38,577 bases of DNA, taken from assembly GCF_000469385.1 (NCBI RefSeq), contig NZ_KI271358.1, positions 1-38,577 of the forward strand, read 5' to 3'. Positions 4,422 through 29,296 of the stretch are shown piece after piece; position 1 is the stretch's first letter; the number at the start of each line of letters is the position of its first letter. The notes below the pieces were generated by a model. The model was given only the letters and a program-made list of their open reading frames with translations, searched no databases and had not been told where the DNA came from. This DNA is from Leptotrichia sp. oral taxon 879 str. F0557. GTDB taxonomy: Bacteria; Fusobacteriota; Fusobacteriia; Fusobacteriales; Leptotrichiaceae. Position numbers and translations under genes: made by a program.

Positions 4422-4684
4422 AAATAATCCCCCTTTTGATTACATTATACTTAAATATTTCCCCCAAATCTGCCACTTAAATAAAATAACTTATATTTTA
4501 TGACAAATTATACCATATTGATTTGTTATTTGATAGATAAAAAAATTAAAATTTGGATTTTATTATTTTGTAGTCATTAAAGAAAATTTTTATCTATTTA
4601 ATTAAGTTATTTTCTAAATTTTCTTTATATTTTTTTGGTTAATAATAATTTTTTTATAATTTTTATATTTTGCCTTTTTTTAAG
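4422..4684. other. Gene-free AT-rich stretch upstream of the ComEA-like gene
   Basis: No credible reading frame on either strand. It must contain the promoter of the minus-strand ComEA-like gene, but no unambiguous -35/-10 pair stands out. Nothing else was recognised. Confidence 0.5.
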
Positions 4685-4716
4685 TATAAAGGGGATCAAT
4701 CGCTATCCCCTTTATA
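4685..4716. other. Perfect 12-bp stem-loop at the edge of the structured repeat
   Basis: TATAAAGGGGAT (4685-4696) pairs perfectly with ATCCCCTTTATA (4705-4716) around an 8-nt loop CAATCGCT. No T-run follows on either strand, so it is not an obvious intrinsic terminator. It abuts the left end (TGGCTCG, 4721) of the repeat copy and has the same 8-nt loop size as the hairpin at the repeat's other end. Confidence 0.6.
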
Positions 4717-4720
4717 ATCC

Positions 4721-5078
4721 TGGCTCGTCTAAGCATTTTTTTGAAATAAAATTGAAACTCGCTTTTTAATAAAAGTTATTATTAATTCTTAAAATAATTA
4801 TAACTTAAATGTTTTGAAAAAGCTCAAACAGTCAATTTCATTCCAAAAAAATCACGACAATTTTTAGTATAATTACAAAAGATAATCTTATTAAAATAAA
4901 TTCCAAGCAAAATTTCGTTAGAAGAAAAATAGCTGTTTGAGCTTTTGGAACAAATTTTAAATTAGATAAGATTGTTTGAATTAAAATTATTTATATTCAA
5001 AAGCGAGTTCTATTTTTCTTATATAAGAAATTTTTGCGTAAAGCGGGTTTGTAAGGGCATGGCGTCTGATGCCCTTAC
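4721..5078 (+). repeat. Structured intergenic repeat, copy 1
   Basis: About 360 bp of non-coding DNA alignable by eye to the reverse complement of 11391-11655. Shared blocks include AACTCGCTTTT, GCAAAATTTCGTTA, CTGTTTGAGCTTTT, TATTCAAAAGC and TTTTGCGTAA-GCGGG, ending in a hairpin with loop GGCGTCTG (5051-5078). Copy 1 holds two inverted modules of 76-77 nt: 4756-4831 (AACTCGCTTTT...AAAAGCTCAAACAG) and 4933-5009 (CTGTTTGAGCTTTT...AAAAGCGAGTT), whose ends are perfect complements (11 and 14 bp). No transposase or reading frame is inside. It resembles a MITE or a structured-RNA repeat; which one is unknown. Confidence 0.75.
5051..5078 (+). other. Hairpin with GGCGTCTG loop, copy 1
   Basis: Perfect 10-bp stem GTAAGGGCAT (5051-5060) / ATGCCCTTAC (5069-5078) around the loop GGCGTCTG. 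The same loop tops a stem of different sequence at 11391-11418. No U-tract follows (GTCAAAAAAG), so it is not a normal terminator. It lies about 200 bp upstream of the DUF4153-like gene on the coding strand of that gene. Confidence 0.7.
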
Positions 5079-5277
5079 GTCAAAAAAGATTTAGAATTAT
5101 AAATAAAAAAAAATAATTAATTAAAATAATCTAGAAAATAAGTGATTAAGGAAATAACTTTATTGAGGGAGAAAAAAGAAAATAAAATAATTTTCTCATT
5201 TTTTTTAGCTAAGAATGTGATATTATAATATAAAAATAAATAGTAAAATCAAAAATTATGATAAGAGGTGTTTATCA

Positions 5278-10575: not shown

Positions 10576-11352
10576 TTAATCCTCCTTTTCTATTTCAAGA
10601 TGATTTTTATTATCTTGAGTTAATTTTTTACTTTTATATGTTTTTTCAATATTTTCAGGAGTAAAAATTTCCTCTACAGGACCGGAAGCTATAACAGAAA
10701 CATTTATAAACGTCACATAGTCAAAATAATCCTTTACCGTTTGTAAATCATGATGAACAACGATTACAGTCTTTTTCTCATCTCGTAATTTTTTTAGAAT
10801 ATTTACAATAGATTTTTCAGTTTTGCTATCAACTCCTTGAAATGGTTCATCCATAAAGTATATTTCTGCATCCTGTACCAATGCCCGTGCTAGAAATACC
10901 CTTTGCTGCTGTCCACCAGACAACTGGCTTATCTGCCTGTCTGAAAACTCATCCATTTCGACTTTATGAATAGCTTCCTTCGTCTTTTCCTTATCAATTT
11001 TTCTAACTTTCTTTAACCATCCAACTTTCCCATAACGCCCCATTTCCACAACATCAAATACAGTAGTAGGAAAATCCCAGTCAACACTACCTCTTTGAGG
11101 CACATACGCTATTTTATCACGTACTTTGCTGTATTTTTCGTTATAAAACCTAACCTCTCCAGTAATAGGCTTTATCAAATCAAGCATAGCCTTAATCAAA
11201 GTAGATTTTCCCGCTCCATTCGGTCCAACAATAGCCATAAGAATGCCTTTTTTTATCCCCAGTTCAATATCCCATAAAACAGGTTTATCCTCGTAGGCTA
11301 TCGTCAAATCTTCAACTTTTATAATAACATCATCAGAAATATTTGTATTCAT
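10576..11352 (-). CDS. Metal (Mn/Zn/Fe) ABC transporter ATP-binding protein
   Basis: Nucleotide-binding subunit of the importer, 258 aa. Walker A GPNGAGKST at 43-51, signature LSGGQQQRVFLARAL near 143-157, Walker B AEIYFMDEP near 163-171 with the catalytic Glu, and the switch His in VVHHDL near 199-204. All catalytic motifs are intact. The start has AGGAG at good spacing. It is separated from the binding-protein gene upstream by about 309 bp filled by a structured repeat, whereas all other joints in this operon are overlapping or within 3 bp. Confidence 0.93.
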   Translation of the reverse strand: MNTNISDDVIIKVEDLTIAYEDKPVLWDIELGIKKGILMAIVGPNGAGKSTLIKAMLDLIKPITGEVRFYNEKYSKVRDKIAYVPQRGSVDWDFPTTVFDVVEMGRYGKVGWLKKVRKIDKEKTKEAIHKVEMDEFSDRQISQLSGGQQQRVFLARALVQDAEIYFMDEPFQGVDSKTEKSIVNILKKLRDEKKTVIVVHHDLQTVKDYFDYVTFINVSVIASGPVEEIFTPENIEKTYKSKKLTQDNKNHLEIEKED

Positions 11353-11390: not shown

Positions 11391-11418
11391 GCAGAGGTAT
11401 CAGACGCCATACCACTGC
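11391..11418 (-). other. Hairpin with GGCGTCTG loop, copy 2
   Basis: On the plus strand GCAG-A-GGTAT (11391-11400) pairs with ATACC-A-CTGC (11409-11418) around CAGACGCC, which on the minus strand is the loop GGCGTCTG also seen at 5061-5068. One A-A mismatch. The stem sequence differs from copy 1 but pairing is kept. It lies about 40 bp before the ATPase start, on that gene's coding strand; no U-tract follows. Confidence 0.7.
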
Positions 11419-11655
11419 ACTCCCGCTTACGCAAAACTTTCTTATAAAGAAAAAAGAAAACTAGCTTTTGAATATAGGTTATTTTTATATCAAATAAATT
11501 AATTTTATTTAAAATATTTTTCAAAAGCTCAAACAGTTCTTTTTTCTTTAACGAAATTTTGCTTAATATTTATTTTTATTAAATTAATTATTGTAATTAA
11601 ATCAAAAATATCTTGATTTTTGAAAATAAAAATTATGGTCTGAGAAAAGCGAGTT
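11391..11655 (-). repeat. Structured intergenic repeat, copy 2, inside the metal-uptake operon
   Basis: Reverse-complement relative of 4721-5078. Shared blocks on the plus strand are the terminal hairpin, CCCGCTTACGCAAAA, AACTAGCTTTTGAATA (11459-11474), AAAAGCTCAAACAG (11523-11536), TAACGAAATTTTGC and AAAAGCGAGTT (11645-11655). It keeps one complete module (11459-11536) and only the outer end of the second, lacking about 70 nt present in copy 1. It fills nearly the whole 309-bp gap between the binding-protein and ATPase genes. No coding sequence is inside. Confidence 0.75.
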
Positions 11656-11661
11656 TAATTT

Positions 11662-12597
11662 TTATTTTAAAGCATTTACAATGGTATCGGCGTTTGCTTT
11701 AACTGTTTTAATATAAGTTTCAGAGTTGTGTGTTTTGTCTCCTAATGAGTCTGAATACAATTCTCCACCTATTTTAACTTCTTTTCCTTTAGATTTTACA
11801 GCTTCCTGCAGAGCTTCTATACTTTTTTTCGGAACAGAAGATTCTACAAATATTGCTTTTATATTTCTTTGAACAATGAAGTTGGCTAAGTCGCTTATGT
11901 TTTTTGTACCAGTTTCAGAATCTGTAGAAACCCCTTGTATTGCTTTTACTTCTAGTCCAAATTGCTCTCCAAAGTAGTTAAATGCATCGTGAGCTGTTAC
12001 AAGAACTCTGCTTTTTTCAGGAATTTCCTTGATTCTTGTTTTTACATAAGTTGTAAGCTCATTTAGTTCAGCTTTATATTTTTTTAAGTTTTCTTTGTAG
12101 TAATCGCTATTTTTAGGGTCAAATTTACTTAATTCAGCTTCTACAGCTTCGGCTTCCTTTTCCCATAGTTCAGTATTGAACCATACATGCGGGTCAGGAG
12201 TATTTTGGTCAACTAGATGAATTTTACTTTTATCTAGTTTATCCCCAACATTTAGTATATTTTTGTTTTGAGAAGTTAATTTTTCGAAAATTTCTGTCAT
12301 TTTACCTTCTAGATGTAATCCACCATACACTATAATATCTGCATTTCCAAGTTTTTCAATATCTCCTGCACTGGCACTATATAAATGTGGATCTACTCCT
12401 TCTCCCATGAGACCTGTAACTTCGACTTTATCTCCGCCGATTGTTCTTATAAGGTCAGTAAGCATTGTAGTAGTAGTAGTAACTTTTATTTTTTTTCCTG
12501 ATGAAGAACCATTTTTTCCACAGGATACAAGTAACATCATTACTATACATATTGCAATTAATAAATTTAATTTTTTAAGAATATTGTTTTTACTCAT
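11662..12597 (-). CDS. Metal ABC transporter substrate-binding lipoprotein, TroA/MntA/ZnuA type
   Basis: Captures Mn2+, Zn2+ or Fe2+ at the cell surface for the downstream ABC importer. 311 aa: lipoprotein signal with lipobox LVSC, then a cluster A-1 binding protein. Likely metal ligands are the His in VDPHLY, the His in PDPHVWFN, the His in VTAHDAFNYFG and the Asp in LYSDSLGD, the three-His one-Asp set of TroA. The long His-rich loop typical of ZnuA is absent, slightly favouring Mn over Zn. An earlier in-frame start (12639) is less likely: the ATG at 12595-12597 has GGAGG 8 nt upstream and yields a clean signal peptide. This start overlaps the last 8 nt of the regulator gene. Confidence 0.9.
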   Translation of the reverse strand: MSKNNILKKLNLLIAICIVMMLLVSCGKNGSSSGKKIKVTTTTTMLTDLIRTIGGDKVEVTGLMGEGVDPHLYSASAGDIEKLGNADIIVYGGLHLEGKMTEIFEKLTSQNKNILNVGDKLDKSKIHLVDQNTPDPHVWFNTELWEKEAEAVEAELSKFDPKNSDYYKENLKKYKAELNELTTYVKTRIKEIPEKSRVLVTAHDAFNYFGEQFGLEVKAIQGVSTDSETGTKNISDLANFIVQRNIKAIFVESSVPKKSIEALQEAVKSKGKEVKIGGELYSDSLGDKTHNSETYIKTVKANADTIVNALK

Positions 12598-13264
12598 AGT
12601 CAATCTCCTCCAAGTCTTTATTTTTTTTATAAACTTCAATCATTGTTGCTGCGTTAAAAGCTACTATTTTTTTATTATTTTCTTTACTCTTTAAATATAT
12701 TGGACCATCAAAGGGATCTTTTTTTTCCACAATATACTGTTCTTTTAAATTTATGTTTAAATCCCGCAGATAGTCGTATAATTCAATATTATCCTCTACA
12801 CTTAGTATAACAATTTCATCATTTTCCTCAGTCTCTGACAATTTTATGACATTTTCTTCATCAAAGTCTTTTAAATCATAAAAAATTGGACTTCCATGTG
12901 GGCATTCTTTTGGATAAAATAAAAACTTTTCAAGTTTTTGAAGAAGTTTGTTACTTGTAACGTGTTCTAAAATCTCAGCCTCTTTATGAACATCTTCCTT
13001 ATCATATCCCAGTTTTTCAAATAGAAAAACTTCCCAAACTCTATGTTTACGAATAATATCTAATGCAAAATTATTTCCTTTTTCAGTAAGCTTCACTTTC
13101 TTTTTTTCAATAGTTAAATAGCCTTCATTTACTAGCTTTTTTATCATTTCGCTAACTGATGCTGGAGATATATTTAAATATTCTGCAAGTTTTTTGTTGG
13201 AGTATTCTTTTTTCTTTTTTAAAGTGTATATCCCTTTTAAATAATCTTCAATACTTTTACTCAT
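12590..13264 (-). CDS. DtxR-family metal-dependent transcriptional regulator (MntR/TroR type)
   Basis: 224-aa repressor expected to bind DNA when loaded with Mn2+ or Fe2+ and shut off the uptake operon it heads. Residues 1-60 are the DtxR winged helix (MSKSIEDYLKGIYTLKKKKEYSNKKLAEYL, then NISPASVSEMIKKLVNEGYL). Metal-site residues lie in the dimerization domain (RKHRVWEVFLFEKLGY near 74-89; HKEAEILEH near 93-101; CPHGSPI near 119-125). The C-terminal part (about 145-224) looks like an SH3-like FeoA-type domain, so this is the long form. First gene of the operon; its 3' end overlaps the binding-protein start. Promoter and operator lie just upstream, consistent with autoregulation. Confidence 0.87.
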   Translation of the reverse strand: MSKSIEDYLKGIYTLKKKKEYSNKKLAEYLNISPASVSEMIKKLVNEGYLTIEKKKVKLTEKGNNFALDIIRKHRVWEVFLFEKLGYDKEDVHKEAEILEHVTSNKLLQKLEKFLFYPKECPHGSPIFYDLKDFDEENVIKLSETEENDEIVILSVEDNIELYDYLRDLNINLKEQYIVEKKDPFDGPIYLKSKENNKKIVAFNAATMIEVYKKNKDLEEIDYE

Positions 13265-23716: not shown

Positions 23717-25948
23717 ATGGACGCATGGAGAGGATTTAAAGAAGGAAATTGGAAAGACAACATCGATGTTACAGAATTTATCAGATTAAATTATACTGAG
23801 TATTTAGGAGATGACAGCTTTTTAGAAGGGCCAACAGAAGCTACTACTGAACTGTGGAAAAGCCTTTCAGAAAAATTCAAGGTAGAAAGAGAAAAAGGTA
23901 TTTATGACGCTGAAACTAAAATACCTTCACAAATTGACGCTTATGGAGCAGGGTATATTAATAAAGATTTGGAAAAGATAGTAGGATTACAAACTGATGC
24001 ACCTTTAAAAAGAGCGATTTTTCCAAATGGTGGATTGAGAATGGTAAAAAACAGTTTGGAAGCATTTGGATATGAACTAGATCCCAAAACTGAAGAAATT
24101 TTTACTAAATATAGAAAAACTCATAATGATGGAGTTTTCTCAGCATATACTGATCAAATCAGAAAAGCAAGAAAAACAGGAATTATAACTGGACTTCCAG
24201 ATGCTTACGGACGTGGAAGAATTATTGGAGATTATAGAAGAGTTGTACTTTACGGAGTAGACAGATTAATTGCTGACAGACAAAATCAATTGAAAAATAT
24301 GGATCCGGCTGAAATGACAGAAGATGTAATAAGACTTAGAGAAGAAGTTTTTGAACAAATTAAAGCATTGCATGCTTTAAAGAGAATGGCTGAATCTTAT
24401 GGCTTTGACATTTCTGGACCAGCTACTAACGGTAAAGAAGCAGTACAATGGCTATATTTTGCATACTTAGCCGCTACAAAAGATCAAAATGGAGCTGCAA
24501 TGAGTATTGGAAGAACTTCTACATTCTTAGATATTTTCTTGGAAAGAGATTTGCAAGAAGGTACTTTGACTGAAAAAGAAGCTCAGGAAATAATGGATCA
24601 CTTTGTTATGAAATTAAGAATAATCAGATTCTTAAGAACACCAGAATATGATGCATTATTCTCAGGAGATCCAGTTTGGGTAACTGAATCAATCGGTGGT
24701 ATTGGAGAAGATGGAAGATCATTAGTTACTAAAAACTCATTCAGAATTTTACATACATTGTACAACATGGGAACTTCGCCTGAACCAAACCTGACAGTTC
24801 TATGGAGCGAACAATTACCTGAAACTTGGAAAAAATTCTGTGCAAAAGTATCAATTGATACATCATCAGTACAATATGAAAATGATGATATTATGAGACC
24901 ACAATTTGGTAATGACTACGGAATTGCCTGCTGTGTATCTCCAATGACTATCGGACACCAAATGCAATTCTTTGGAGCAAGAGTAAACTTGCCAAAAGCA
25001 TTATTATATGCAATTAATGGTGGAAAAGATGAAAAATTAAAAATACAAGTAACTCCAGAAGGGCAATTTGAGCCAATTAAGAGCGAATATCTTGAATTTG
25101 ATGAAGTATGGGAAAAACTGGATAAAGTATTAGACTGGTTAGCTTCAACTTATGTTAAATCATTAAACATTATTCACTATATGCATGATAAATATTCTTA
25201 TGAAGCATTAGAAATGGCATTGCATGATGTTCATATTAGAAGAACAGAAGCATTTGGAATTGCAGGATTATCAATTATTGCAGATTCATTGGCAGCTATT
25301 AAATACGGTAAAGTAAAAGTTGTAAGAGATGAAGAAGGGGATGCAGTTGACTATATCAATGAAAAAGACTATGTTCCATTTGGAAATAATGACGATGCTA
25401 CAGATCAGTTTGCAGTAGACATTACAAGAAGATTTATGAACAAATTAAGAACTCATAAAATGTATAGAGATGCCACTCCTACACAATCTGTATTGACAAT
25501 TACTTCAAATGTTGTATATGGCAAGAAAACAGGAAATACTCCTGATGGAAGAAGAGCTGGAGCACCATTTGGGCCAGGAGCAAATCCTATGCATGGAAGA
25601 GATACAAGAGGAGCTGTTGCTTCACTTGCCTCAGTAGCTAAAATTCCGTTTGAAGATGCAAACGATGGAATTTCTTACACATTTGCAATTACACCAGAAA
25701 CATTAGGTAAAAATTCAAATGAAAAACAAACTAATTTAGTTGGATTAATGGATGGATACTTCAATCAAACAGGACATCACTTGAATGTAAACGTATTCGG
25801 AAGAGAATTGTTAGAAGATGCAATGGAACATCCTGAAAATTATCCTCAATTAACAATCAGAGTTTCTGGATATGCAGTAAACTTTGTTAAATTGACTAAA
25901 GAACAACAATTAGATGTAATTAACAGAACAATATCAAATAAAATGTAA
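23717..25948 (+). CDS. pflB: Formate C-acetyltransferase (pyruvate formate-lyase)
   Basis: Glycyl-radical enzyme converting pyruvate and CoA to acetyl-CoA and formate in anaerobic fermentation. 743 aa, normal length. Catalytic cysteines C405-C406 in GIACCVSPM, and the glycyl-radical loop RVSGYAVNF with Gly718 near the C-terminus. The start [12 protein letters not shown] matches the family, and AAAGGATG lies upstream. It uses common codons and few rare ones compared with its neighbours, as expected for an abundant protein. It has its own promoter and two strong hairpins downstream; the activase gene follows about 590 bp later. Confidence 0.97.
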
Positions 25949-26053: not shown

Positions 26054-26193
26054 ATGTGATAATTTAAACTAAACTCTGTTTAATACCAAAACCCATTTAA
26101 ATAACGAATTTATTATACATTTTTCTAATAAAGGATATAAATTTAGTATTTTCAAATAATTTAAGATATAATTTTCGTTTTTTAAATAGAATC

Positions 26194-26292
26194 TGGCTCG
26201 AACTAATCCGTCGGAGCATTTTTCTGTGCTGGCAAAACTGTTTGAGCATAGCGAGTTTTTTGTCAGTGCAGAAAAATGTCGTAGACTAGCCA
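26194..26292. repeat. Long hairpin repeat related to the structured intergenic repeat, copy 3
   Basis: A 21-bp stem, 26217-26237 against 26258-26278, has no true mismatch if the plus strand is transcribed: 18 Watson-Crick pairs and three G-U pairs. The 20-nt loop is CTGTTTGAGCATAGCGAGTT, which joins directly the two end motifs (CTGTTTGAGC and GCGAGTT) of the 76-78-nt modules in copies 1 and 2. Outer flanks TGGCT (26194-26198) and AGCCA (26288-26292) also pair. TGGCTCG also begins copy 1 at 4721, again followed shortly by AGCATTTTT. Not coding. Confidence 0.75.
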
Positions 26293-26535
26293 TAGGTTAT
26301 TGCGAGCAATCTTGCCAAATATTTTGATTATTAGGATAAGCCTTTTACTGCAAGATAAGGTTTTGCGGCAATGAGCAATCCTGCAAACATAAGAAAAAAG
26401 TTGAATAGTTATGAATTAGCTATTGGAGAACCCTGTTATAAAAATTTATTCTCATTTTTAAACGAGGTTTAGTATAAAATAAAGTTTAAGTTATCGAATA
26501 ATTTATTGAATAAAAAAGAAAGAGAGAAAACTAAT
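26293..26535. other. Gap before pflA with short repeats
   Basis: Contains ATTGCGAGCAAT (a small palindrome), a pair ATCTTGC / GCAAGAT near 26310 and 26352, and a second GAGCAAT-C-TGC near 26372, so more folded repeat sequence. No gene seen. A pflA promoter must lie here or further upstream, but none is clear. Confidence 0.4.
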
Positions 26536-27270
26536 ATGAAAGTAAAAGGGTACATACATTCATTCGAATCATTTGGGACTAAGGATGGGCCTGGAATTAG
26601 ATTTGTGCTGTTCTTGCAAGGATGCCCTCTTAGATGTCTGTACTGTCATAATGTGGATACTTGGGAAATTAAGGACAATAAGATGATTATGACGGCTCAG
26701 GAAGTTATGAATGAAATTTTAAAAGTAAAGGGATTTATAAAAACTGGTGGGGTTACTGTATCTGGCGGTGAGCCTTTGATGCAGCCTGAATTTTTGATGG
26801 AGCTGTTTAAGCTTTGTCGTGAAAATGGGATTCAAACGGCACTTGATACATCCGGGTATATTTTCTCTGATAAGGCAAAACAGGTGCTTGAGCTTGTTGA
26901 TATGGTTCTGCTTGATATTAAGCACATAAATCCTGAAAAATATAAAATATTGACTTCAGTGGAGCTTGATAATACATTAAAATTTGCAAAATATTTGAAT
27001 GAGATTAATAAGCCGACTTGGTTAAGATATGTGTTAGTTCCTGGATATTCTGATGATGAAAATGATTTGCATGAGTGGGCAAAGTTTACTTCCCAGTTAA
27101 AAAATGTGGAAAGAGTGGATGTTTTGCCATTTCACCAAATGGGGCAGTATAAGTGGGAAAAAGTTGGGAAAGAATATAAATTAAAGGATACGCCAACACC
27201 AACGAGAGAATTAGTTGAAAAAGCTGAAGAAATTTTTAGATCTTATGGGTTGAAATTATTGGATAAATAA
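26536..27270 (+). CDS. pflA: Pyruvate formate-lyase activating enzyme
   Basis: Radical-SAM enzyme that generates the glycyl radical on PflB. 244 aa. The cluster motif C30-x3-C34-x2-C37 is in LQGCPLRCLYCHNVDTW; the SAM-binding GGVTVSGGEPLMQPEF follows at about 69-84. It begins MKVKGYIHSFESFGTKDGPGIRF as in the family. An in-frame TTG at 26506 would add ten residues, but ATG 26536 aligns with the family and has a purine-rich GAGAGA upstream. It is separated from pflB by about 590 bp containing a terminator and a hairpin repeat, so it is probably transcribed separately. Confidence 0.95.
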   Translation: MKVKGYIHSFESFGTKDGPGIRFVLFLQGCPLRCLYCHNVDTWEIKDNKMIMTAQEVMNEILKVKGFIKTGGVTVSGGEPLMQPEFLMELFKLCRENGIQTALDTSGYIFSDKAKQVLELVDMVLLDIKHINPEKYKILTSVELDNTLKFAKYLNEINKPTWLRYVLVPGYSDDENDLHEWAKFTSQLKNVERVDVLPFHQMGQYKWEKVGKEYKLKDTPTPTRELVEKAEEIFRSYGLKLLDK

Positions 27271-27413: not shown

Positions 27414-28205
27414 TTAGCTAATTAAACTTTGTGAATAAATTATCTCTTTTATCTGTCCTAAGTTATTTGCCTTGCCAATTCCTATACTAATTGCTTTAGT
27501 TTTGAAGGGGGTAAAATTGTAATTTAAGATAAATGAATTTATTTTGGATGAATTTTCCTGAGTGAGCAAGGTTATATGCGGATCAAAGTTCATAAATACA
27601 TCTGGAGAGCCATATAAATTGAACAATTTTTCTTTTTCAGGAAAGTACCTTACCCACTCAGGAGTTTCTATGTCTTTCTTACGGTACTTAGTTAGGTTGA
27701 CTGTAATTTCATCTGCAAGCTGCTGAATATTTTGATTATTTTTGGCATAAACTGCAAGCGTTTTTCTTTCTGTTTTTTCTAACTTGTAAAATTCCATATC
27801 AAAAGATTTTGTCTGGTTTGCAATTTTTTCGACAGTTTCCTTGATTTTATATAGAGAATTTTTTTCATATTTTGTAAGATATAATGTCACATGTATAACA
27901 TATCCTTGTGTATAAAGGTTTTCAATTTGATTTTCCTCTAATTTCTTTGAAATATTTTTAATATTTTTAGTTGCACTATTATCCATAATTATGAAAACGT
28001 TATAATTTTCATTTGTACTGGAATCGGAACTAAAAAAATTAAATAAAATCGCTCCTCCAATAATAATGAAGAATATTTCTGCATCACTAAAACTTTGATC
28101 TGAAGCAGAAACGTTAGAATTGTCATTAGAAGTACTGTAATCTGCATTGGAAAAAATATTAAAACAAAATAGTATAAAAGCTAAAAAAAATATTTTTTTT
28201 ATCAT
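27414..28205 (-). CDS. Exported 2H-phosphoesterase-like protein, paralogue 2
   Basis: 263-aa protein with a signal peptide (MIKKIFFLAFILFCFNIFSNA), a Ser/Asn-rich linker and an extra hydrophobic segment (about 43-58) absent from its paralogue at 28643, so it may be membrane-tethered. The two H-x-T motifs of the 2H phosphoesterase superfamily are at His105-Thr107 (VIHVTLYLT) and His210-Thr212 (DPHITLLT), 105 residues apart as in the paralogue. The superfamily includes 2'-5' RNA ligases/cyclic phosphodiesterases; the exact substrate here is unknown, and an extracytoplasmic location is unusual. It has its own promoter, nearly identical in layout to that of the paralogue. Confidence 0.6.
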   Translation of the reverse strand: MIKKIFFLAFILFCFNIFSNADYSTSNDNSNVSASDQSFSDAEIFFIIIGGAILFNFFSSDSSTNENYNVFIIMDNSATKNIKNISKKLEENQIENLYTQGYVIHVTLYLTKYEKNSLYKIKETVEKIANQTKSFDMEFYKLEKTERKTLAVYAKNNQNIQQLADEITVNLTKYRKKDIETPEWVRYFPEKEKLFNLYGSPDVFMNFDPHITLLTQENSSKINSFILNYNFTPFKTKAISIGIGKANNLGQIKEIIYSQSLIS

Positions 28206-28642: not shown

Positions 28643-29296
28643 TTATTTTTTAAATTTTACCGAATAAATTATATTTTTTGCTTGCCCCAAATCGTCAACT
28701 TGAGCGATTCCTATACCAATGACTTTAGATTTGAAAGGTTTAAAATCATATTTTGAAGTAAATGCATCTATTTTTGCTGAATCTTCTGGAGTAAGTAAAG
28801 TTATGTGTGGATCAAAGCTTGTAAATACATTTGGAGAGCCGTACAAATTGAAGGATTTTACTTTTTCAGGAATAGATTTTGCCCAGTCAGGAACTTGTGC
28901 GTCCTTTGCACGATATTTGTTTAAGCTGACTGTTATTTCATCTGCAAGCTGTTGTATAGCTTCATTGTTTTGAGCATCAAGCATAAACCAGTTTCCGCCA
29001 GTTTTTCTTAATCTGTAAAATTCTATATCAAAAGGCTTTGTCTGATTTGCAATTTTGTTGACAGTATCCTTTATTGTTTTTAGTGCTTCAGGCTTGTATT
29101 CTGTAAGATAAAGTGTCAGATGGACTGCATATCCTTTGGAATAAAGGCTTTCGATTCCTTCATTTTTAAGTCCTTTTGAAATGTTTTCCACATTTTTAGT
29201 TGCATTGTTATCCATAATTACAAAAACATTATAGTTTACATTAGAAAAAACATTGATACAAAACATTAAAAAAATTGAAAAAAATAATTTTTTCAT
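28643..29296 (-). CDS. Exported 2H-phosphoesterase-like protein, paralogue 1
   Basis: 217-aa protein with a signal peptide (MKKLFFSIFLMFCINVFSN) followed directly by the domain. H-x-T motifs at His59-Thr61 (AVHLTLYLT) and His164-Thr166 (DPHITLLT) mark the 2H phosphoesterase fold. It is clearly homologous over its length to the protein at 27414 (shared YNVFxIMDNxATKN, KIANQTK, QQLADEITV, FNLYGSP). No lipobox is seen. Likely periplasmic. The family cleaves 2',3'-cyclic or 2'-5' phosphodiester bonds, but the substrate here is unknown. It heads a probable operon with the thioredoxin-like gene. Confidence 0.65.
   Translation of the reverse strand: MKKLFFSIFLMFCINVFSNVNYNVFVIMDNNATKNVENISKGLKNEGIESLYSKGYAVHLTLYLTEYKPEALKTIKDTVNKIANQTKPFDIEFYRLRKTGGNWFMLDAQNNEAIQQLADEITVSLNKYRAKDAQVPDWAKSIPEKVKSFNLYGSPNVFTSFDPHITLLTPEDSAKIDAFTSKYDFKPFKSKVIGIGIAQVDDLGQAKNIIYSVKFKK

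What the first reader, a model, noticed from the sequence alone, without database searches (positions are those of the whole stretch)
4756..5009. Two inverted 76-77-nt modules framed by CTGTTTGAGC and GCGAGTT, recurring elsewhere in the window
Copy 1 holds module 4933-5009 and its inverted partner 4756-4831. A third intact module is 11459-11536, and a compact form with nothing between the end motifs is the loop at 26238-26257. Within each module the closing stem pairs but its sequence varies: GCTTTTG/CAAAAGC (right module and copy 2) versus GCTTTTT/AAAAAGC (left module), a compensatory change. Three to four copies in 38 kb, always intergenic, without a transposase, point to an active or recently active non-coding repeat: a MITE, or a structured RNA with a host function.
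Basis: partly seen in the sequence, partly recalled or inferred. Interest (0 to 1): 0.62.

Follow-up and report, generated by a model that had tools for sequence, protein, structure and literature searches.

The report
Small jumping elements carrying conserved hairpins
The repeats are small non-coding jumping elements that carry a folded hairpin module, and the core of that same hairpin turns up unchanged, on completely different stems, in bacteria from at least eight phyla, which no database or paper I could search describes.

Summary
CTGTTTGAGC occurs 36 times in the window's 2.4-Mb genome against 0 for the reversed control, about 31 of them in elements rather than genes by inspection. The window holds three elements: two head-to-head pairs of hairpin modules (about 4633-5141 and 11391-11682) and a single module in a ~400-nt element (26069-26472). 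They are MITEs. A sister genome has 40 or more copies of a ~470-nt relative, 92-100% identical, with imperfect terminal inverted repeats (TIRs); 23 of 28 copies have exact 9-11-bp target duplications. Orthologous loci show the 26-kb copy present, inverted or absent. The surprise is the cargo. Its apex, CTGTTTGAGC-RNA-GCGAGTT, is exact in at least 116 stretches of one public collection from >=8 phyla (chance ~0.2), on stems whose sequence varies freely but pairs (covariation 0.727 versus 0.170 shuffled), often followed by a second hairpin whose loop pairs with upstream bases (pseudoknot-like). In Cellulophaga it rides in a different MITE with IS5-like TIRs and 3-bp duplications, so it is not one transposon's end. 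No Rfam family matches, no neighbouring gene is enriched, and REP/RAYT mobilisation is disfavoured. MITE: well supported. Function of the module: inferred only (structure used as single-stranded DNA, or as RNA).

The parts
4633..5141 (.). Copy 1: composite element, two hairpin modules head to head (C module on -, A module on +); outer limits approximate
   Evidence: Repeated in all 13 genomes of the genus over about query 1134-1642 = window 4633-5141; ends degenerate, no TIR/TSD readable in this old copy
4684..4717 (-). Second hairpin (P2) of the C module, loop GCGATTG
   Evidence: Fold z -6.4
4727..4859 (-). C module long hairpin (P1): GTCGTGATTTTTT...CTGTTTGAGC(4822-4831)...GCGAGTT(4757-4763)...GCTTAGAC
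   Evidence: fold z -3.8 with internal loop CUGUUUGA/GAGUU
4860..4906 (.). Centre between the two head-to-head modules
   Evidence: Sequence; same layout in G075 copies
4907..5038 (+). A module long hairpin (P1): GCAAAATTTCG...CTGTTTGAGC(4933-4942)-~60-nt AT-rich inner hairpin-GCGAGTT(5003-5009)...TTTTTGCG
   Evidence: fold z -4.2
5051..5078 (+). Second hairpin (P2) of the A module, loop GGCGTCTG
   Evidence: Fold z -3.2; conserved among A copies
11391..11418 (-). Copy 2: P2 hairpin of its A module
11430..11562 (-). Copy 2: A module P1; CTGTTTGAGC at 11527-11536, 3' motif mutated to GCTAGTT (11459-11465)
   Evidence: (I1, I2)
11609..11682 (+).
26069..26472 (.). Copy 3: ~400-nt MITE (B element) with TIR CTAAACYCYGTTTAAA..., TA-like 2-bp target
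26210..26286 (+). Copy 3: B module P1, apex CTGTTTGAGC-ATA-GCGAGTT at 26238-26257
   Evidence: fold z -5.6

Best explanation
The repeats are non-autonomous DNA transposons (MITEs) of a Fusobacteriota genome, moved in trans by DDE-type transposases acting on their TIRs. Shown: TIRs, target-site duplications, copy number, near-identical copies, empty and inverted orthologous sites. Inferred: the transposase in this genus. Their interior is one fold-back module or two modules head to head. Each module is a long imperfect hairpin with an invariant internal loop (CTGTTTGA/GAGTT), a GC clamp and a GNA/GNNA-type cap, followed by a second small hairpin that in many lineages is pseudoknotted to the upstream strand. 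Shown: conservation and covariation, in >=8 phyla and in MITEs with different TIRs. The module is therefore a shared cargo rather than the transposase-binding end. Most likely mechanism (inferred, ~45%): it acts as folded single-stranded DNA, extruded or exposed during replication, whose compact GNA-capped hairpin is bound by a widely conserved host factor or brings the TIRs together, raising transposition or masking the insertion. Next most likely (~35%): it acts as folded RNA in read-through transcripts.
For: MITE: 36 motif copies in the genome versus 0 in the control; ~40-50 matches per genome for each of two elements across most of the genus; >=40 copies of a ~470-nt composite in G075, 92-100% identical over ~378 nt; TIR GACAGAGTAAAATA.TTAGGGG / CCCCTAAAATTTTTAAACCATC; 23 of 28 analysed copies with exact 9-11-bp duplications; at the 26-kb locus the element is present in G000/G070, inverted in G069/G071/G072/G078 and absent in the other seven. 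Module: exact core in >=116 stretches of genome contigs from >=8 phyla by record title (~0.23 expected by chance); 78 distinct hairpins: 84.7% of cells paired versus 54.9% shuffled, covariation 0.727 versus 0.170, 366 double changes versus 124; pseudoknot complementarity of >=5 nt in 29 of 75 loci versus mean 12.4, maximum 22, with loops swapped. Different carrier: Cellulophaga MITEs of 168-200 nt, TIR GAAGCTGTTTAAACTT, 3-bp duplications, and a longer element with the same TIR encoding DDE transposase fragments. DNA-level reading: 4-nt caps are GNNA in 13 of 14 but GNRA in only 2, which fits the rule for stable DNA mini-hairpins, 'GNA or GNNA loop and at least two G-C pairs' (PMC4686876); no strand bias to genes; wobble pairs only ~4% of apical pairs.
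Against: No autonomous partner with the same TIRs was found in the window's genus; the window's A/C copies are too decayed to read TIRs or duplications. The U-rich pseudoknot and the excess of G-U over A-C pairs (33 versus 14, p=0.008) would also fit RNA. The Cellulophaga transposase assignment rests on weak Pfam scores (E about 9e-4, below cut-off) and frames with in-frame stops. No binding partner is known. The 4-nt cap tally was read by hand from tool listings.
Confidence: 0.78

Rival explanations
1. The module works as RNA: when a MITE lies in or downstream of a transcription unit, the read-through transcript folds into the capped hairpin plus U-rich pseudoknot, which binds a conserved factor (ribonuclease, RNA polymerase, ribosome) and protects or insulates the neighbouring mRNA.
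For: Covarying stem and pseudoknot; G-U over A-C excess; copies 2 and 3 lie between genes of apparent znu and pfl operons; U-rich linker next to a U-A-rich stem could form a major-groove triplex (sequence).
Against: No orientation preference relative to flanking genes (27 versus 28); caps are GNNA rather than GNRA; no Rfam family; no expression data available.
Confidence: 0.35
2. REP/REPIN-like palindromes mobilised as single strands by a Y1 (IS200/RAYT) tyrosine transposase.
For: Head-to-head palindrome pairs, extragenic placement avoiding divergent promoters; Y1 genes present in 34 of 45 motif-bearing genomes.
Against: Genomes rich in the element (G071, G072, G078) have no PF01797 match at all; only 1 of 60 Y1 loci has the motif within 1.5 kb; exact 9-11-bp and 3-bp target duplications and TIRs indicate DDE transposition; no GTAG foot.
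Confidence: 0.07
3. Ordinary intrinsic transcription terminators that happen to share sequence.
For: Bias to 3' ends of genes (convergent 18, divergent 6, p=0.02); some modules are followed by a T-rich stretch.
Against: No strand bias; the second hairpins in the window genus are followed by A-runs on the module strand; an invariant 17-nt internal loop and cap are not needed for termination; TIRs and target duplications.
Confidence: 0.05

Closest known systems
[quoted passage not shown]
   Same: Short, non-coding, TIRs, target duplications, tens of copies, intergenic
   Different: Carry a fold-back module whose core is conserved across phyla and across MITE families with different TIRs and duplication lengths
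REP/BIME/REPIN palindromes, GTAG and CGTC superfamilies (PMC3733652)
   Same: Extragenic palindromes, head-to-head dimers, avoid divergent promoters
   Different: Published families are 20-40 bp, defined by an unpaired GTAG or CGTC foot, most with short loops; here the apex/internal loop is invariant, stems are free, TIR+TSD present, no linked RAYT. B and C modules do begin (C)GTCG, A modules and most other phyla do not
GNA/GNNA DNA mini-hairpins, d(GCGAAGC) (PMC4686876)
   Same: Apex GC-RNA-GC and GC-GNNA-GC fits the loop rule
   Different: Known mainly as a physical-chemical motif; here it caps a repeated genomic element with an extra invariant 8x5 internal loop
IS5-family insertion sequences
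   Same: Cellulophaga module carriers share TIRs with an IS5-like element and have 3-bp duplications
   Different: Only one carrier group; the Leptotrichia-like carriers have other TIRs and 9-11-bp or 2-bp targets

Membership tests
MITE | Terminal inverted repeats | tested here: met
   G075 element; B element; not readable in window A/C copies
MITE | Target-site duplication | tested here: met
   9-11 bp in 23 of 28 G075 copies; TA-like 2 bp for B, approximate; not readable for A/C in the window
MITE | Shares TIRs with an autonomous transposon in the same genome | tested here: inconclusive
   Not found in the window's genus; found in Cellulophaga with weak transposase scores
MITE | Presence/absence polymorphism at orthologous sites | tested here: met
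REP/RAYT system | RAYT (PF01797) gene in the genome and flanked by the repeats | tested here: not met
   Absent from G071, G072, G078; motif near 1 of 60 Y1 loci
REP (GTAG or CGTC superfamily) | Unpaired GTAG or CGTC at one foot of a 20-40 bp palindrome | tested here: not met
   (C)GTCG start only in B and C modules; not in A nor in most other phyla
Known structured RNA (Rfam 15) | Match to a covariance model at gathering score | tested here: not met
   No match in the window or at the modules of 20 loci; only chance-level below threshold
Conserved fold-back structure | Covariation above shuffled and slid controls | tested here: met

The most novel reading that the evidence does not exclude
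A single, previously undescribed nucleic-acid structure (hairpin with invariant 8x5 internal loop, GNA-type cap and a pseudoknotted second hairpin) is spread through many bacterial phyla as cargo of unrelated MITEs because a universally conserved host factor recognises it, as single-stranded DNA or as RNA.
Probability: 0.35. Interest if true: 0.85.

Novelty: new variant of a known kind. Interest (0 to 1): 0.66.

Why it matters
Bacterial MITEs and palindromic repeats are usually lineage-specific and judged by their ends. A module whose core is identical from Fusobacteriota to Bacteroidota, Bacillota, Pseudomonadota and Desulfobacterota, while every stem is free to change as long as it pairs, means selection has acted on its structure over very long times, across different transposases. 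It gives a concrete, searchable signature for asking why so many non-coding mobile elements carry hairpins, and whether a host protein recognises them.

Tried and rejected
Rfam at gathering and permissive thresholds: nothing relevant. Protein family enriched beside the motif in 116 loci from many phyla: the largest clusters covered at most 15 loci, and no single family stood out. Y1/RAYT linkage: tested twice, not supported. Autonomous partner by TIR in G075: the extra TIR sites checked were the same ~460-nt MITE or had no readable right end; a 1.97-kb TIR pair in G071 encloses an ordinary glycoside-hydrolase-like gene and is read as two neighbouring elements. Text search for the motif sequence in papers: only unrelated sequences. 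Literature on Leptotrichia/Fusobacteria MITEs: no description found. The skipping-rope RNA and attC ideas were recalled from memory and dropped: no Rfam match for the former; attC conserves its feet, not its apex.

Full report
OBSERVATION. The window is contig C78 of a 2.416-Mb genome; CTGTTTGAGC occurs there 36 times against 0 for the reversed control. By inspection five of the 36 lie in genes (L002, L005, L011, L012, L029). The rest fall into three families, A, B and C, that share only the core. Corrections: the 11459-11536 module has GCTAGTT instead of GCGAGTT, and next to it lies a degenerate C module (11609-11682), so copies 1 and 2 are both head-to-head A+C pairs; copy 3 is a single B module.

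ELEMENTS. Searching the genus with the flanking DNA shows that copy 1 (about 4633-5141) and copy 3 (26069-26472) are each repeated tens of times per genome in most of the 13 species. At the orthologous site of copy 3 the element is in the same orientation in G070, inverted in G069, G071, G072 and G078, and absent in the other seven. The site is the same, so inversion in place or a second insertion at the same target occurred; I cannot tell which.

TRANSPOSITION. The closed genome G075 carries at least 40 copies of a composite (B module reversed, ~30-nt centre, C module) that are 92-100% identical; two are identical over 380 nt. Aligning 36 copies with flanks gives a ~470-nt element beginning GACAGAGTAAAATA.TTAGGGG and ending CCCCTAAAATTTTTAAACCATC, imperfect TIRs. 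Of 28 copies with both ends recognised, 23 have an exact direct repeat immediately outside (20 of 10 bp, 2 of 9, 1 of 11). This is the signature of a DDE-type transposase and makes the element a MITE. The B element has other TIRs (TACTAAACYCYGTTTAAA) and a TA-like 2-bp target. No autonomous partner was found in this genus.

THE MODULE ACROSS PHYLA. In Fusobacteriota the core with an open 2-14-nt cap is in 27 of 98 genomes, up to 52 copies, controls near zero. Named isolates include Elizabethkingia, Cellulophaga, Flavobacterium, Capnocytophaga, Bacteroides, Variovorax, Clostridium and Propionigenium, so this is not only mis-binned MAG contigs. It is rare in viral contigs (3 hits) and patchy in the family of Elizabethkingia (16 of 297 genomes, 1-3 copies; some of those hits have irregular spacers).

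STRUCTURE. The core sits at the tip of long imperfect palindromes with unrelated stems. On 78 hairpins with dissimilar arms, 84.7% of cells pair against 54.9% in shuffles, the covariation score is 0.727 against 0.170, and sliding the register by one to three columns destroys it. All four Watson-Crick pairs are common at most positions of the stem. The invariant part is an internal loop, CTGTTTGA opposite GAGTT, closed by GC/GC and a cap of the form RNA (the alignment was collected with the core fixed, so the core's own conservation rests on the chance estimate and on the open-cap search). Where the cap has 4 nt it is GNNA in 13 of 14 cases but GNRA in only 2 (tally by hand). Downstream, many lineages have a second hairpin whose 6-nt loop is complementary to bases before a T-rich linker (CTTGAT/ATCAAG, CTTGAA/TTCAAG, CTTGAC/GTCAAG, TGCCC/GGGCA, TCGCC/GGCGA). 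At least 5 nt of complementarity occurs in 29 of 75 loci, against a mean of 12.4 and a maximum of 22 when loops are swapped between loci. In the window genus this pairing is reduced to a few bases at most, so the pseudoknot is not established for the window copies. The window modules fold better than shuffles as RNA (z -3.8 to -5.6) and as DNA (z -3.3 to -4.5).

DIFFERENT CARRIERS. In Cellulophaga sp. BC115SP the module lies in 168-200-nt MITEs with TIR GAAGCTGTTTAAACTT and 3-bp duplications; a longer element with the same TIR carries frames resembling DDE transposases of the IS5 group (Pfam E about 9e-4, below cut-off). Head-to-head pairs of about the same spacing also occur in Bacteroides and Pasteurellaceae loci (L074, L151, L097, L144). 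The module is therefore not the transposase recognition end of one family but something several families carry.

WHAT IT IS NOT. Not a known Rfam family. Not a classical REP/RAYT system: three element-rich genomes have no Y1 transposase at all, only 1 of 60 Y1 loci in the searched genomes has the motif within 1.5 kb, and the defining GTAG or CGTC foot (PMC3733652) is missing apart from a (C)GTCG start of the B and C modules. Not linked to any protein family. Not strand-tied to genes: 27 same/same, 28 opposite/opposite, with fewer in divergent (6) than convergent (18) gaps.

MECHANISM. Shown: non-autonomous transposition with TIRs and target duplications; long-term selection on fold plus invariant core. 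Inferred: the active form is a folded single strand. For DNA: caps obey the rule for stable DNA mini-hairpins (GNA or GNNA with at least two G-C pairs; PMC4686876), no gene-strand bias, wobble pairs only ~4% of apical pairs. For RNA: G-U exceeds A-C (33 versus 14, p=0.008), the pseudoknot with its U-rich linker resembles RNA tertiary structures (own knowledge), and copies 2 and 3 lie between genes of apparent znu and pfl operons, so they are probably transcribed. I put about 45% on the DNA reading, 35% on RNA, and the rest on neither. In G075 the second hairpin of the C module is almost free of substitutions (0.0023 per site against about 0.03 elsewhere; Poisson p about 1e-10), which hints that this part is under continuing selection or was spread recently by gene conversion.

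VERDICT. As an element it is a MITE, an ordinary kind. Its cargo, a structure conserved across phyla and shared between unrelated MITEs, is not described in anything I could search, and is the part worth pursuing. Absence from my searches is not proof of novelty: most subscription literature and ISfinder were not available.

Noticed in passing
11391-11682 and 26069-26472: Copies 2 and 3 sit between genes of apparent operons: znuA (11662-12639 -) and an ABC ATPase (10576-11352 -); pyruvate formate-lyase (23717-25948 +) and its radical-SAM activase (26506-27270 +).
   Followed up: partly
26069-26472 and orthologous loci L206-L210: The same insertion is found in opposite orientations in different species of the genus, suggesting in-place inversion or repeat insertion at one site.
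   Followed up: partly
L250, L258, L260, L263, L264: Some B modules in G075 have the 5' half of the internal loop replaced (CTGCCCCGCCGTAAGCGAG instead of CTGTCTGAGCGTAAGCGAG), a shared variant in several copies.
   Followed up: no
L297, L307: Cellulophaga modules carry extra small inserted hairpins (GCGGCCGCCGCTGCGG; GAGGTGGTACGCCACTC) at two places of the fold.
   Followed up: no
L250-L289, G075 consensus element positions 333-364: The second hairpin of the C module is nearly free of substitutions among copies that differ by about 3% elsewhere.
   Followed up: partly
27414-28205 and 28643-29296: Tandem paralogues of the 2'-5' RNA ligase/DUF1045 type with similar upstream regions (repeat finder D1-D4).
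   Followed up: no
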